Positions 51,536 to 56,923 of a DNA stretch of 64,000 bases are shown piece by piece. The translations under genes were made by a program, and so were the position numbers. The notes under the pieces were generated by a model, which was given only the letters and a program-made list of their open reading frames with translations, did not search any database and was not told the DNA's origin. Numbering within the stretch: the first letter of the stretch is position 1; each line of letters begins with the position of its first letter. The DNA lies in NCBI RefSeq assembly GCF_900100715.1, contig NZ_FNCA01000004.1:62001-126000 (forward strand). Direction: 5' to 3'. This stretch comes from Methanolobus vulcani. GTDB lineage: Archaea > Halobacteriota > Methanosarcinia > Methanosarcinales > Methanosarcinaceae.

Positions 51536-53089
51536 ATGACTAACAATGAGGATATAACCGGCCTTGAAGCAATTTTCCTTGCAGCACTTGACAGCAATGT
51601 GAGGTTCATTACTGCTGTTGCCGGATATCCCATGACTGCAGTTGCAGACTACTTTTTTGAGAATAAAGATCCCAGTAACTGCAATAACTATAATATTCAC
51701 TGGTTCACCAATGAGAAAGCAGCCATGGAAGCTGCACTTGGAGCATCAGTTACCGGACGTCGCTCCATGGTGATGGTCAAGCACGTAGGAATGAATGTGC
51801 TTTCCGACCCCCTTATGACAGCAATGATGCACACTATCGGTTCAGGGCTTGTGATACTTGCAGGCGATGACCCGGCAGCAAAAGCATCACAGAACGAGCA
51901 GGATTCCAGATTCTACGGAGCTATTGCCGAGACTGCTGTCTTTGACCCTGCAACACCCCGGGATGCTTATGATTCACTGAGCAGGGCTTTTGAACTCTCT
52001 GAGGAAGCGAAGGTACCTGTTATTATGAGAATTACCGACAGGCTTGAAAAGGAAAAACAGAAGGTCAGCAGGTCACAGATAAACTCAAAAGCAAAACAGG
52101 AAGAAAAGCTTCTAGACAGGGACATCTGGAAACTTACCATGCATGGTAAACACCAGAGATTCCATATTGAATCTGAACCTATCCTTATTCATGAAGCTGA
52201 GAACTCACGTTCCAACCATATTTCAATCAATAGTGACAAAGTTGGAATAATCTCATCAGGTTATCCTTCGCTAATTGTAGATGAGATACTTTCCACGCAG
52301 GTAGTTTATTCTTCTTATTCACACTTGGGTCTTGGAATGGTTACGCCATTTCCTGTGGAACTGATTAAAAGTTTCATAGAAAAACATGAACGCATACTTG
52401 TTGTGGAAGAAAGTGAAGCTTTCATCGAATCACAAATCAGGACAGGCTGCGACAGTATCCTTGGAAAAAGGACCGGCCATCTGCCTTTTGGCATGACAGA
52501 AAAGGAACATGTTGAGTTTGCTTTTGAGAACATCGATAATGACAAAGTCTCAAAATACACAGATATTCAGACTATTCTCAGCAGAGGCTCAAGACCAATA
52601 TGCAGTGATTGTCCGTTCATGCCACTTTACAACATCCTCCACGACATTCAACCCGTTGCAGGTGATATGGGATGCTCCATACGTACAGCACCCGACCCAT
52701 TAAATGCAGTTGATACAGGATTTGCACTTGGTGGTGCAATATCAACTGCCTGTGGTTTTCCAGGAAAGGGAATAGCAGTTATCGGAGACTTCGGGCTTGC
52801 ACATTCCGGTATTATCGGACTCATTAACGCAGTTGATGCTGGCTTTGACATCCTTGCGATCATACTTCAGAATGATGTTGCTGCAATGACAGGAGGACAA
52901 AGTGCACCTGACCTGAAAGGAGTTGTAACATCACTTGTATCTGATACAACCTGCATAAATATCGATGAGATGCAGGATTTGGAAGGAAAAGAAGCTTGCT
53001 CAGAAAATATTAAAGATATGATACAGAAAAAATTAAACACAAAGGGCGTTTCTGTGATCTATATTGAAGGCAAGTGTACAAAAAACTAA
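51536..53089 (+). CDS. IorA-like thiamine-pyrophosphate enzyme without ferredoxin domain
   Basis: 517 residues. N-terminal alpha-type domain: AVAGYPMTAVADYFFEN, FTNEKAAMEAALGASVTGRRSMVMVKHVGMNVLSDPL, typical of indolepyruvate:ferredoxin oxidoreductase alpha. C-terminal TPP domain from about 340 with SDCPFMPLY, GCSIRTAPDPLN, IAVIGDFGLAHSGIIGLINAV and LQNDVAAMTGGQ. True IorA proteins (over 600 residues) end in two [4Fe-4S] motifs; these are missing. No iorB gene is adjacent. It stands between methanogenesis markers 11 and 12, hinting at a methanogen-specific role. Confidence 0.8.
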   Translation: MTNNEDITGLEAIFLAALDSNVRFITAVAGYPMTAVADYFFENKDPSNCNNYNIHWFTNEKAAMEAALGASVTGRRSMVMVKHVGMNVLSDPLMTAMMHTIGSGLVILAGDDPAAKASQNEQDSRFYGAIAETAVFDPATPRDAYDSLSRAFELSEEAKVPVIMRITDRLEKEKQKVSRSQINSKAKQEEKLLDRDIWKLTMHGKHQRFHIESEPILIHEAENSRSNHISINSDKVGIISSGYPSLIVDEILSTQVVYSSYSHLGLGMVTPFPVELIKSFIEKHERILVVEESEAFIESQIRTGCDSILGKRTGHLPFGMTEKEHVEFAFENIDNDKVSKYTDIQTILSRGSRPICSDCPFMPLYNILHDIQPVAGDMGCSIRTAPDPLNAVDTGFALGGAISTACGFPGKGIAVIGDFGLAHSGIIGLINAVDAGFDILAIILQNDVAAMTGGQSAPDLKGVVTSLVSDTTCINIDEMQDLEGKEACSENIKDMIQKKLNTKGVSVIYIEGKCTKN

Positions 53090-53178: not shown

Positions 53179-54165
53179 TTAGCGCTTATTCTTGAAATTG
53201 ACATTTAAACCCAGAATTTTGCTTGAACCTGAATGGATATCACGTGCGATCTCTGCACAACCAATAGCAGCACTCCATCTGTCAAGTACATGGGCTTTAA
53301 CGTCAAGATGTGTTTCTATCTTTTTCACGACCTCAGGAACCTCGCCAACGGAACCTTCGATAATAACTTCACCAACGGAACCGTACTCCTTCATCAGAAG
53401 CTGCATACCTGCAATTTCCATGGCTGCAAAAAGTGCGATACTATCCATGGCCAACATGGCCTGAGAATCCCCATCTTCTGCCGCTTTAATGAGTTCATGT
53501 CTATCTGAGAAAGAAGTGTGTTTGAGAACACCCGAATTTACAAACGCCTCATTAGCACTTATCTTGCCTGCATCAACATCCCTGAGAGCTTGCACATCCA
53601 GTGGCCCATGCTGCAATCCCGGAGCAAATATACAGGCATCTATGGCACCGATAAGTTTTCCGTTTGCAACCGCCACAGTAACAGTATTCGAGCTTATATC
53701 GGAAAGCACAAAGTCACTGAATCCAAGAGCAAATGCATGGTAAGCGATACCTATTTTTTCAGGACTGGTGGAATGTGAGAAAATATTGAGGCGGGAGTCT
53801 GTGTCGCTGTTTTCATGGATACCCGGAATAACAACAGCAGGAATAGCAGAAGATCTTATGGAATCAAAAACAAGACCCCCACCACCTGTTTTCTTACCGG
53901 CACCTTCTATACTCTTGACACCACGGTTTTTAACAGTAGCTATGTCCTCTATATCCTTTATGCCATCCCCCATTGAATAGGTCACAGCCATGAGGGAAAT
54001 ATCTGAAGAACTTATCCCGAAAGCAGTTTCCATTGAAGATATAAGCTGGGACTGAGTCATCTCGGCAGCATCAGTCCTTGGAATCTCAAGTCTCAGCACC
54101 TTCCCGTCAGGAAAAAGTGCAGCAAAACGCATTGCAGTGGTACCATGATCTATTCCAATGAACAT
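53179..54165 (-). CDS. Methanogenesis marker protein 12 (ASKHA-fold)
   Basis: 328 residues from the ATG at 54163-54165, with AAGGTG six bases upstream; the GTG at 54174 overlaps that site. FIGIDHGTTAMRFA is the phosphate-1 motif of the actin/sugar-kinase fold. GAGKKTGGGGLVFDSI and VIPGIHENSDTDSRLNIFSHSTSPEKIGIAYHA are marker-12 specific. Function unknown, confined to methanogens. It lies one or two bases behind the DUF2103-like gene. Confidence 0.88.
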   Translation of the reverse strand: MFIGIDHGTTAMRFAALFPDGKVLRLEIPRTDAAEMTQSQLISSMETAFGISSSDISLMAVTYSMGDGIKDIEDIATVKNRGVKSIEGAGKKTGGGGLVFDSIRSSAIPAVVIPGIHENSDTDSRLNIFSHSTSPEKIGIAYHAFALGFSDFVLSDISSNTVTVAVANGKLIGAIDACIFAPGLQHGPLDVQALRDVDAGKISANEAFVNSGVLKHTSFSDRHELIKAAEDGDSQAMLAMDSIALFAAMEIAGMQLLMKEYGSVGEVIIEGSVGEVPEVVKKIETHLDVKAHVLDRWSAAIGCAEIARDIHSGSSKILGLNVNFKNKR

Positions 54166-54175
54166 AAATTTCACC

Positions 54176-54624: not shown

Positions 54625-55803
54625 TCACAACGATATCGGTAATTTTAGATCAAATATCGTACCTGATGGAACGTTAGTGCGAAGGGTTACTTCGCCACCA
54701 TAGCGTTCAATTATTTTCTTTACAATATACAGACCAATACCTGTGTGGCCGCGGGAACCATATTTGAAATTCTTATCAAATACCATGGACTGAACCTCCA
54801 GAGGAATACCTATACCATCATCTGCAACTGAAACTTCACAGAAGTTCTTATTTCCCTTTATTGAGACATCTATTCTGTCAGCATGTCCATGAGTAATCGA
54901 GTTAGAGATCATATTGTCGAAGACCGAATACAAAGCCTCATCACCTGCTACCATGCAATTGCCTTCAAGACAAAAGTCCACATCATAATTCTCCAGAACT
55001 GAAGCAACCACTCCTCTCAGATTAAAGGATTTCAAACTTTCATCAGAGAATAGAGCAGATTCAAGTTCTTGCATCCTTGTCATCAACTGAACACATTTAT
55101 CCACACTCTTTATGGCTTTTTTAGCTATATCCCAGTTCTCATCAGTCACCATCATGTCAAGTGACATCCTCACAACAGCAAGGTCATTGGAAATATCATG
55201 ACGAAGAATGCTGTTTATTACCCGCAGGAACTCATTCATTTCAGCCTGCTGGTACTCAAGTTTCTTACGCTGATCAATATCATGAAAAACAAGTAAAAGG
55301 TCGCTATCCTGGTTAGCATTACCTTCTATTCTAGAAATATTCATCTCAACATGCTGTTCACAACCATCATTATGAACAAGTATCACATCTTGGCAAAAAG
55401 AACTGCCACCTTCTACCAGGCCCATCATTTCCCTGAAATCACAAACATCATCAACATCTGCATAACGAATACCGATCAAAGCGCATATATCACCTTCGAT
55501 ATTTGAATGACCTTTTATTTCGAGCATCCTTTTGAAAGAGTCATTTATGAACTTTATTTTTCGGTCAGGACCAATTATAGCTATTGAATCAGTGATATTG
55601 CCTATTGTTTGCCTGAATCTTTTGTTCTGAAATTCGATCTGCAGGTTCTTTTTAATAAGCTCACGCTGGATATTGACAAGCTCATTGTTAAGCATGCTGA
55701 GCCTATCATAAATGCTTTGTCCAGGAATAGTGAGACTGCAACATGAATCATATTCAGGCTGTCTGTTCAATCTTACATGAGATTCAGAAGTTATTAATTT
55801 CAT
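54625..55803 (-). CDS. Soluble PAS histidine kinase paired with the B12-binding sensor
   Basis: About 392 residues, no membrane helix. An N-terminal coiled coil (about 30-60, DRLSMLNNELVNIQRELIKKN) leads into a PAS domain (about 68-180, FRQTIGNITDSIAIIGPDRKIKFIND). The kinase core has INSILRHDISNDLAVVRMSLD (His near 206), N box NMISNSITHG, G1 DDGIGIP and TGIGLYIVKKI. The RHDISND type of H-box is frequent in archaeal kinases. It starts 43 bases behind the stop of the B12 protein and is probably in the same transcript. The ATG at 55809 is an alternative start. No response regulator is next to it. Confidence 0.92.
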   Translation of the reverse strand: MKLITSESHVRLNRQPEYDSCCSLTIPGQSIYDRLSMLNNELVNIQRELIKKNLQIEFQNKRFRQTIGNITDSIAIIGPDRKIKFINDSFKRMLEIKGHSNIEGDICALIGIRYADVDDVCDFREMMGLVEGGSSFCQDVILVHNDGCEQHVEMNISRIEGNANQDSDLLLVFHDIDQRKKLEYQQAEMNEFLRVINSILRHDISNDLAVVRMSLDMMVTDENWDIAKKAIKSVDKCVQLMTRMQELESALFSDESLKSFNLRGVVASVLENYDVDFCLEGNCMVAGDEALYSVFDNMISNSITHGHADRIDVSIKGNKNFCEVSVADDGIGIPLEVQSMVFDKNFKYGSRGHTGIGLYIVKKIIERYGGEVTLRTNVPSGTIFDLKLPISL

Positions 55804-55846
55804 ATTCATTTACCTTTTCCCGGAACATCATGTCAATATACTACGC

Positions 55847-56923
55847 TCATGATACTTCCTGTCTACTTAATCCATCGACCAGTGTATCCGCAATTTCAAC
55901 TGCTTTCCGGGCATTGCGAGCATAAGCATCAGCACCTACTTTTTTCCATAGATCCCGGTCCACATTGAAAGGATATCCACCCACAATTATGAGAATATCA
56001 TTGATCCTTTCATCTTCCCTTATTCGTCTTATGACATCACTCAGCATATTCAGATGGCCTACCATAGTAACAGATAAAAGTAACAGATCTGCCTGAACTT
56101 CAGCAACCGTGCGAATAATGCTCTCCACAGGAGTATTTGCTCCCAGATAACAAGTGTTCCAGCCTTCCATCTCAAAAAAGTCTGCAACCATTCTCATTCC
56201 CATCTCATGAAGTTCGGTTCCGACACATGCAGCCACTACACCATGCTTATTGCCCGACCTGGAAAGAACATAAGGATAGAGTTGTGCCATTATCTTCTGT
56301 GTTGCAGCGGTGCAGAAATGTTCTTTTGCAACACTGATAGAATTCAGTTGCCATAGCCTTCCTATTTCTAATTGGGAACACTGGAAGATATTGAGATATA
56401 TATCCTTTATATCTATTCCCTGTTCCACTGCCTGAATTATGAGTCGGTATGCTCCCTTTTCATCATTTTCAAGCAGAAAAGAATTGTATTCTTTTACAAG
56501 TGAAGGTAGCTTGCTTTTTTCAAGATAGCAGGACAATACGGGTGTATCTGACAATAGCCTATCTTTTCCACTGTCAAGTATATCAAAAAGTATCTTTGAA
56601 TTATTCAGATCATCTCTTGATCCAAGAACCTCTCTGATCACGTCAAGATTATCAAGCATATAAGAAGAAGGAAGACCAAGATGTTTAAAGAGAATTTTTA
56701 ACCAATCAATATATGCCATGAAAAGTTCAGGACTTTCATACTTACAGGCATTTTCAAGAAAGATTAGATGATGTTTTACATCAGCGATGCTTTTCTTTTT
56801 CCCTGAACTGCCATATTTTAAATATAGATCAGGAATTCTTTCATAATGCAGATCTACAATTTCATTTGCAATCTGATCAAGCTCATTCAACAAACATGTT
56901 GACAGGTCCCCTTCTTCCAACAT
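55847..56923 (-). CDS. Cobalamin-binding sensor protein, CarH-like cap and B12 domain, no DNA-binding domain
   Basis: 358 residues. Residues 1-115 form a helical domain (HHLIFLENACKYESPELFMAYIDW, then GLPSSYMLDNLDVIREVL) known from stand-alone bacterial B12 sensors. Residues 135-220 are a four-helix cap with Trp191, nine residues, then Glu201-His202 in RLWQLNSISVAKEHF. This is the Trp-x9-Glu-His motif that covers the upper face of adenosylcobalamin in CarH. Residues 228-350 are the Rossmann-type B12 domain with the lower-ligand motif TELHEMG (His239), where the usual first Asp is Glu, as in CarH (ERHEIG). VTMVGHLNML and IIVGGYPFN follow. MerR DNA-binding residues are missing. Probably leaderless behind a TATA element near 56940-56953. 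Confidence 0.88.
   Translation of the reverse strand: MLEEGDLSTCLLNELDQIANEIVDLHYERIPDLYLKYGSSGKKKSIADVKHHLIFLENACKYESPELFMAYIDWLKILFKHLGLPSSYMLDNLDVIREVLGSRDDLNNSKILFDILDSGKDRLLSDTPVLSCYLEKSKLPSLVKEYNSFLLENDEKGAYRLIIQAVEQGIDIKDIYLNIFQCSQLEIGRLWQLNSISVAKEHFCTAATQKIMAQLYPYVLSRSGNKHGVVAACVGTELHEMGMRMVADFFEMEGWNTCYLGANTPVESIIRTVAEVQADLLLLSVTMVGHLNMLSDVIRRIREDERINDILIIVGGYPFNVDRDLWKKVGADAYARNARKAVEIADTLVDGLSRQEVS

What the first reader, a model, noticed from the sequence alone, without database searches (positions are those of the whole stretch)
54625..56923. CarH-like cobalamin sensor coupled to a soluble PAS histidine kinase: possible archaeal B12 photoreceptor system
Seen: the protein at 55847-56923 has Trp191-x9-Glu201-His202 in a helical cap and TELHEMG (His239) in a B12 domain. 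Known: the Trp-x9-Glu-His cap and an ExHExG lower-ligand motif mark the light-sensing adenosylcobalamin domain of CarH, where Trp and the Glu-His pair pack on the adenosyl group; methyl-carrier corrinoid proteins instead have DxHxxG and lack this cap motif. Inferred: since no MerR DNA-binding domain is present and a PAS histidine kinase without membrane helices follows 43 bases later, the signal may go by protein contact to the kinase. In a strict anaerobe this could report light, or the adenosylcobalamin/corrinoid state linked to methylotrophic growth.
Basis: partly seen in the sequence, partly recalled or inferred. Interest (0 to 1): 0.8.

Follow-up and report, generated by a model that had tools for sequence, protein, structure and literature searches.

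The report
Archaeal photocobilin B12 sensor–kinase pair
A methane-producing archaeon carries a two-gene cassette, found across many bacteria, that encodes a probable vitamin-B12 light sensor built like the known photocobilins and, next to it, the histidine kinase that most likely relays its signal.

Summary
The protein at 55847-56923(-) has a CarH-type adenosylcobalamin cap (G188-x2-W191-x9-E201-H202) and lower-ligand H239; 11 other corrinoid proteins inspected in this genome lack the cap motif. Closest solved structure: SasPcob photocobilin (Z 26.4 for the B12 part, 15.9 for the globin), with the biliverdin contacts Asp270 and Trp296 kept as D48 and W74. So it is an archaeal photocobilin with the globin first, an order already reported.

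The kinase link is strong. In 68 of 75 relatives' loci the next gene carries a matching kinase or its conserved coil (LNNELVxxQRELAKKN); the window kinase has the coil (E 1e-14), other kinases almost never do. In 24 of 26 same-genus genomes the pair is absent and its flanks are adjacent, so it is a two-gene cassette. The Methanosarcinaceae copies nest among bacterial ones.

Open: light response, bilin binding and kinase control are inferred. No carrier archaeon searched, and only 13 of 64 bacterial carriers, has canonical heme oxygenase. New member of a known kind, with an unexplained bilin supply.

The parts
55847..56923 (-). photocobilin-like B12 sensor protein, 358 aa
   Evidence: ORF; Pfam B12-binding_2 and B12-binding; AF2 pLDDT 94.6; best PDB match SasPcob 8J2W Z 26.4
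56552..56914 (-). N-terminal photoglobin (phycobiliprotein-like globin) domain, residues 4-124
   Evidence: family profile matches SasPcob C-terminal domain and allophycocyanin; domain model matches allophycocyanin Z 16.3 and SasPcob Z 15.9
56780..56782 (-). Asp48, counterpart of biliverdin-contact Asp270 of SasPcob
   Evidence: alignment; D in 72 of 73
56702..56704 (-). Trp74, counterpart of Trp296 of SasPcob (contacts biliverdin ring D and corrin)
   Evidence: alignment; W in 73 of 73
56267..56506 (-). helical cap (residues 140-219) of the B12-binding module
   Evidence: Pfam PF02607; helices in the model
56351..56353 (-). Trp191, stacks on the adenosyl group in CarH/photocobilins
   Evidence: 73 of 73; PMC10979010 Trp61
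56318..56323 (-). Glu201-His202 pair of the adenosyl pocket
   Evidence: 73 of 73; PMC10979010 Glu71-His72
55856..56257 (-). B12-binding Rossmann domain, residues 223-356
   Evidence: Pfam PF02310 E 4e-21
56207..56209 (-). His239, lower axial ligand of cobalt
   Evidence: 73 of 73; counterpart of SasPcob His108
54625..55809 (-). soluble PAS histidine kinase, 394 aa, probable output partner
   Evidence: Pfam; pair conserved
55618..55713 (-). partner coil IYDRLSMLNNELVNIQRELIKKN, kinase residues 33-64
   Evidence: coil profile from bacterial partner kinases, E 1.1e-14
55264..55620 (-). PAS domain of the kinase, about residues 64-182
   Evidence: Pfam PAS models, sub-threshold to weak; clearer in the G031 partner
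55198..55200 (-). His204, predicted phospho-acceptor (LRHDISNDL)
   Evidence: invariant in archaeal partners
54634..54939 (-). HATPase_c domain of the kinase, residues 291-392
   Evidence: Pfam E 1.3e-22

Best explanation
The two genes are a photocobilin-histidine kinase module. The 358-aa protein binds an adenosylated cobamide between its helical cap and Rossmann domain (H239 below; W191 and E201-H202 around the adenosyl group), with the phycobiliprotein-like N-terminal globin packed against the corrin edge. Light breaks the Co-C bond and shifts the cap, changing the sensor's dimer state or surface. The sensor most likely docks on the conserved coil of the adjacent kinase and changes its autophosphorylation at H204, the signal going on to an unlinked response regulator. 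Shown here: domain make-up, predicted fold, conserved residues, gene-pair conservation, partner coil, gain or loss as a two-gene unit. Inferred: cobamide and bilin binding, light response, docking on the coil, kinase control.
For: Best solved relatives are photocobilins for both domains. All adenosyl-pocket residues invariant, biliverdin-contact residues D48 72/73 and W74 73/73. Downstream gene matches the kinase profile in 68 of 75 loci against 5/72, 3/70 and 18/72 at other positions, often with a 4-base overlap. Coil profile: 66/68 partners, 2/26 other neighbouring kinases, 1 marginal among 69 other kinase loci of the own genome, window kinase E 1e-14. In three Adhaeribacter species the partner keeps the coil but has no kinase. 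Pair gained or lost together at one site in the genus. Literature: photocobilins respond to green and red light and a standalone one acts on a separate enzyme by protein contact (PMC10979010).
Against: No light, binding or kinase data for any member of this subfamily. No canonical heme oxygenase in the archaeal carriers and in most bacterial ones. No known corrinoid adenosyltransferase family found in this genome. SasPcob His137, which meets biliverdin from the other monomer, is not kept (S268 here; alignment). The signature glycine of GxxH is Thr236, with a Gly one position before.
Confidence: 0.66

Rival explanations
1. The protein senses the cobamide pool, not light: binding of adenosylcobamide as against hydroxo- or methyl-cobamide (or the loss of the adenosyl group) sets kinase activity in the dark, so that cells adjust to their corrinoid state.
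For: The host is a methylotrophic-type methanogen with about a dozen corrinoid proteins; many carriers are anaerobes from sediments (titles); canonical heme oxygenase is mostly absent; AbDPcob activity differs between apo and AdoCbl-bound forms (PMC10979010).
Against: The adenosyl pocket of light sensors (W, EH) is invariant in 73 of 73 and absent from the dark corrinoid proteins here; a phycobiliprotein-type domain with both biliverdin contacts kept makes more sense in a light sensor; every tested protein with this signature responds to green light (PMC11796333: four positives, one negative control without it).
Confidence: 0.2
2. A photoreceptor whose partner is not the kinase: the genes are kept together for another reason, for example because both act on a third protein.
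For: Homologues in a second archaeal group keep the adenosyl pocket without a kinase next door; in two Methanohalophilus-type loci an extra gene of unknown family lies between the two.
Against: The coil is nearly confined to the partner proteins and survives in Adhaeribacter partners that have lost the kinase part; in the archaeal group without a neighbouring kinase the globin residues D48 and W74 have mostly changed, as if the module had changed its function.
Confidence: 0.1
3. An ordinary methyl-carrying corrinoid protein of methylotrophic methanogenesis.
For: NCBIfam gives sub-threshold matches to MtgC and MtbC models (64 bits against a cut-off of 370; 59 against 350).
Against: All far below cut-off; GDxHxIG replaced by TELHEMG; W-x9-EH cap present; extra globin domain; no methyltransferase gene beside it.
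Confidence: 0.02

Closest known systems
SasPcob, standalone photocobilin of Saccharothrix syringae (PDB 8J2W/8J2X; PMC10979010)
   Same: Same two domains; W61, E71-H72, H108, Asp270 and Trp296 all have counterparts (W191, E201-H202, H239, D48, W74); standalone protein; B12 part superposes at rmsd 1.9 over 208 residues.
   Different: Domain order reversed (globin first here); 29% identity over the B12 part; His137 not kept; a kinase gene follows here.
AbDPcob, photocobilin with diguanylate cyclase (PDB 8J2Y; PMC10979010)
   Same: Photocobilin driving an enzymatic output; its photocobilin part also acts on the separate cyclase domain by contact.
   Different: Output is a cyclase in the same chain; has His where the biliverdin Asp is, which the window protein keeps.
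CarH / LitR (PDB 5C8D-F, 8C31)
   Same: AdoCbl cap motif W-x9-EH and lower His; B12 part matches at Z about 20.
   Different: CarH carries a MerR DNA-binding domain and no globin; here no DNA-binding domain and a kinase partner.
Bilin biosynthesis-associated globins and photoglobins (PMC10151467; Schneider et al. 2022, not readable here)
   Same: Phycobiliprotein-like globins tied to B12-binding proteins.
   Different: Those in Myxococcales occur in genomes with heme oxygenase; the carriers here mostly lack the canonical enzyme.

Membership tests
Photocobilin | B12 domain with W-x9/10-EH and E/DxH motifs | tested here: met
   W191-x9-E201-H202, E237-x-H239; invariant or E/D in 73 of 73
Photocobilin | fused phycobiliprotein-like globin (photoglobin) domain | tested here: met
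   family profile and fold of the domain alone
Photocobilin | biliverdin-contact Asp270 and Trp296 | tested here: met
   D48 and W74 by profile alignment
Photocobilin | binds AdoCbl and biliverdin; Co-C bond broken by green and red light | not testable with these tools
   needs purified protein; canonical heme oxygenase absent from this genome, which makes the biliverdin part doubtful
CarH-type light-responsive B12 signature (PMC11796333) | GxxW, EH, GxxH, GxxxP | tested here: inconclusive
   GRLW, EH and GANTP present; the GxxH position reads T-E-L-H with Gly one residue earlier
CarH | N-terminal MerR DNA-binding domain | tested here: not met
   no such domain in Pfam; N-terminus is a globin
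Methyl-carrier corrinoid proteins (MtmC, MtbC, MttC, MtgC) | curated family score and GDxHxxG | tested here: not met
   far below cut-offs; motif differs
Two-component histidine kinase (partner) | phospho-acceptor His in a HisKA-like helix plus HATPase_c | tested here: met
   HATPase_c E 1e-22; HisKA E 0.002, below Pfam's cut-off; H204 invariant among archaeal partners

The most novel reading that the evidence does not exclude
The module is a two-chromophore photoreceptor that works in strict anaerobes with a linear tetrapyrrole not made by canonical heme oxygenase (made anaerobically, scavenged, or replaced by another ligand in the globin pocket), feeding a two-component kinase through a dedicated coil: a green and red light sense in methanogens with an unknown second chromophore.
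Probability: 0.18. Interest if true: 0.8.

Novelty: new member of a known kind. Interest (0 to 1): 0.52.

Why it matters
It puts photocobilins, and so a probable light sense, in methane-producing archaea, and gives standalone photocobilins a concrete partner: a kinase with a conserved coil, present in many phyla, that can be tested in a two-protein assay. The bilin-contact residues are kept in hosts without canonical heme oxygenase, which raises the question of what the photoglobin pocket holds in anaerobes.

Tried and rejected
Methyl-carrier corrinoid protein: rejected on motif, extra domain and gene context. CarH proper: no MerR domain. Archaeal invention: rejected, full-length bacterial relatives reach 48% identity and the Methanosarcinaceae copies nest among bacterial ones (quick tree, careful search not finished, several forks weak). 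Anaerobic heme degradation by a HutW/ChuW-type enzyme: TIGR04107 gave no match over cut-off and only weak radical-SAM matches in the archaea; the same search also rings in all control genomes, so it is uninformative. The Pfam scan of the window's own globin domain found nothing convincing; only the family profile and the fold show it. The fold search with the whole model aligned only the B12 part, so the globin domain was modelled and searched alone. The photoglobin paper of 2022 is not held, so whether it already describes the kinase neighbourhood is unknown. The kinase and the sensor-kinase complex were not modelled.

Full report
WHAT IS THERE. On the minus strand, 55847-56923 encodes a 358-aa protein and 54625-55809 a 394-aa histidine kinase, 37 bases apart (43 to the second, better-spaced ATG). 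Pfam finds a B12 cap and a B12 Rossmann domain in the first, and PAS, HisKA and HATPase_c in the second. Neither has a membrane segment. Of the genome's 13 B12-domain matches, the 11 other proteins inspected carry the methyl-carrier GDxHxIG and none has W-x9-EH.

THE MISSED DOMAIN. The best solved relatives are the photocobilins SasPcob (8J2W/8J2X) and AbPcob (8J2Y), ahead of CarH. A weak second match linked query residues 57-100 to the C-terminal biliverdin domain of SasPcob. A profile of 73 family members made this firm: the N-terminal third matches SasPcob's globin and phycobiliproteins; 61 of 73 members hit Pfam Phycobilisome at E 0.1 or better, though the window copy itself does not; and the domain modelled alone (pLDDT 91.5) matches allophycocyanin (Z 16.3) and the SasPcob domain (Z 15.9, rmsd 2.9 over 121 residues). 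The full model has pLDDT 94.6 and pTM 0.90; its B12 part matches SasPcob at Z 26.4, rmsd 1.9 over 208 residues. The sequence numbering of the 8J2W chain is the paper's minus 6 (fixed by W61 and H108), so Asp270 and Trp296, the key biliverdin contacts in PMC10979010, are D48 and W74 here: 72 of 73 and 73 of 73 in the family. AbPcob, which binds biliverdin poorly, has His in place of that Asp (PMC10979010). Photocobilins with the B12 domain at the C-terminus are already reported (PMC10979010; see also PMC11796333), so the order is not new.

THE KINASE LINK. Relatives in 80 loci of many phyla (Chloroflexota, Bacillota, Bacteroidota, Pseudomonadota, Thermodesulfobacteriota, Acidobacteriota and others) cover nearly the whole protein at 38-48% identity. 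The next gene matched the kinase profile in 68 of 75 cases, against 5 of 72 at -1, 3 of 70 at -2 and 18 of 72 at +2; the stop and start codons often overlap by 4 bases. Three of the 68 (Adhaeribacter) are not kinases but short proteins that end in the coil, which leaves 65. What the partners share is a coil, LNNELVxxQRELAKKN. A profile of it finds 66 of the 68, and 2 of 26 other neighbouring kinases, both apparently displaced partners (L092 upstream; L080 behind a stretch of unknown bases). 41 of the 66 fed the profile; the kinases from the own family's genomes and G321 did not, apart from possible near-copies, and score E 4e-10 to 2e-16 (window 1.1e-14). Among 69 other kinase loci of this genome there was one marginal match (E 0.006), none by the strict pattern. 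The coil sits behind an N-terminal region of about 140 residues in most bacteria, directly before HisKA in several Paenibacillus, and before the PAS domain here, so it is the constant part. That it is the docking site is inference.

A TWO-GENE CASSETTE. In the genus, 24 of 26 genomes with the DUF2103 gene have it right beside the ACT-domain gene with no pair between; only the window genome and G061 carry the pair, exactly there. The pair is about 76% identical between those two, while the flanking genes are mostly 83-99%, and its GC (0.38) lies below that of the neighbours (0.42-0.46). Three genomes of another genus (one identical in this protein to Methanohalophilus euhalobius) hold the pair elsewhere. 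A decayed B12 gene without a kinase match remains in G039. In the tree the Methanosarcinaceae copies lie inside the bacterial family, apart from a second archaeal group; the tree is the quick version with many weak forks.

THE UNSOLVED CHEMISTRY. Canonical heme oxygenase (PF01126) is absent from this genome and from every archaeal carrier searched, and present in 13 of 64 bacterial carrier genomes, 10 of them Paenibacillus. Other heme oxygenase families were not searched, and many of these genomes are drafts. Yet D48 and W74 are nearly invariant. W74 may be held by contact with the corrin (Trp296 does this in SasPcob, PMC10979010); D48 has no such known reason, so another ligand or a scavenged bilin is possible. 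Known corrinoid adenosyltransferase families (PF01923, PF02572) were also not found here, and PF02572 is missing from 20 of 20 archaeal genomes with or without the pair, so these archaea may use another enzyme; this is inference.

SECOND ARCHAEAL GROUP. Other methanogen genomes (family f15) have homologues that keep the adenosyl-pocket residues but mostly change D48 or W74 and have no kinase next door. G321, in the same family, keeps both residues in two copies, each followed by a coil kinase. Three further genomes have a B12-only version followed by a kinase with a weak form of the coil.

VERDICT. A real find of a known kind: an archaeal photocobilin with a dedicated kinase partner. The family, its domain order and signalling by protein contact are known; the coil-kinase pairing, the archaeal carriers and the missing heme oxygenase deserve follow-up. 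I could not check whether the 2022 photoglobin paper already describes the kinase neighbourhood. Light response, cofactor binding and kinase control remain untested.

Noticed in passing
whole genome G000: No CobA-type (PF02572) or PduO-type (PF01923) corrinoid adenosyltransferase in this corrinoid-rich methanogen; PF02572 is missing in 20 of 20 related genomes, so an unrecognised enzyme may do this step.
   Followed up: partly
L091:6026-6520, L094:6027-6542, L117:6040-6561: In three Adhaeribacter species the gene after the photocobilin is a 164-173 aa protein that ends in the conserved coil and has no kinase domain.
   Followed up: partly
L045:6515-7048, L047:8039-8533: A 164-177 aa helical-looking protein without any Pfam match lies between the B12 gene and the kinase in two Methanohalophilus-type genomes.
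   Followed up: partly
L075:5749-7574, L076:5803-7615, L078:4515-6309: B12-only proteins without the globin, followed by kinases with a weak form of the coil, in methanogens of other families.
   Followed up: partly
L067-L074: A second archaeal group of photocobilin-like proteins keeps the adenosyl pocket but mostly changes the biliverdin-contact residues and has no kinase next door.
   Followed up: partly
51536-53089: A 517-aa protein like indolepyruvate ferredoxin oxidoreductase alpha (IorA) scores about half the family cut-off (315 against 651 bits), so it may be a different 2-oxoacid enzyme.
   Followed up: no
53179-54174: Methanogenesis marker 12 (TIGR03281), an uncharacterised conserved methanogen protein, directly followed by DUF2103; the two stay adjacent across the genus.
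   Followed up: no
L048:3228-3672: Decayed photocobilin gene with several stop codons and no kinase match nearby in genome G039 of the same genus.
   Followed up: partly
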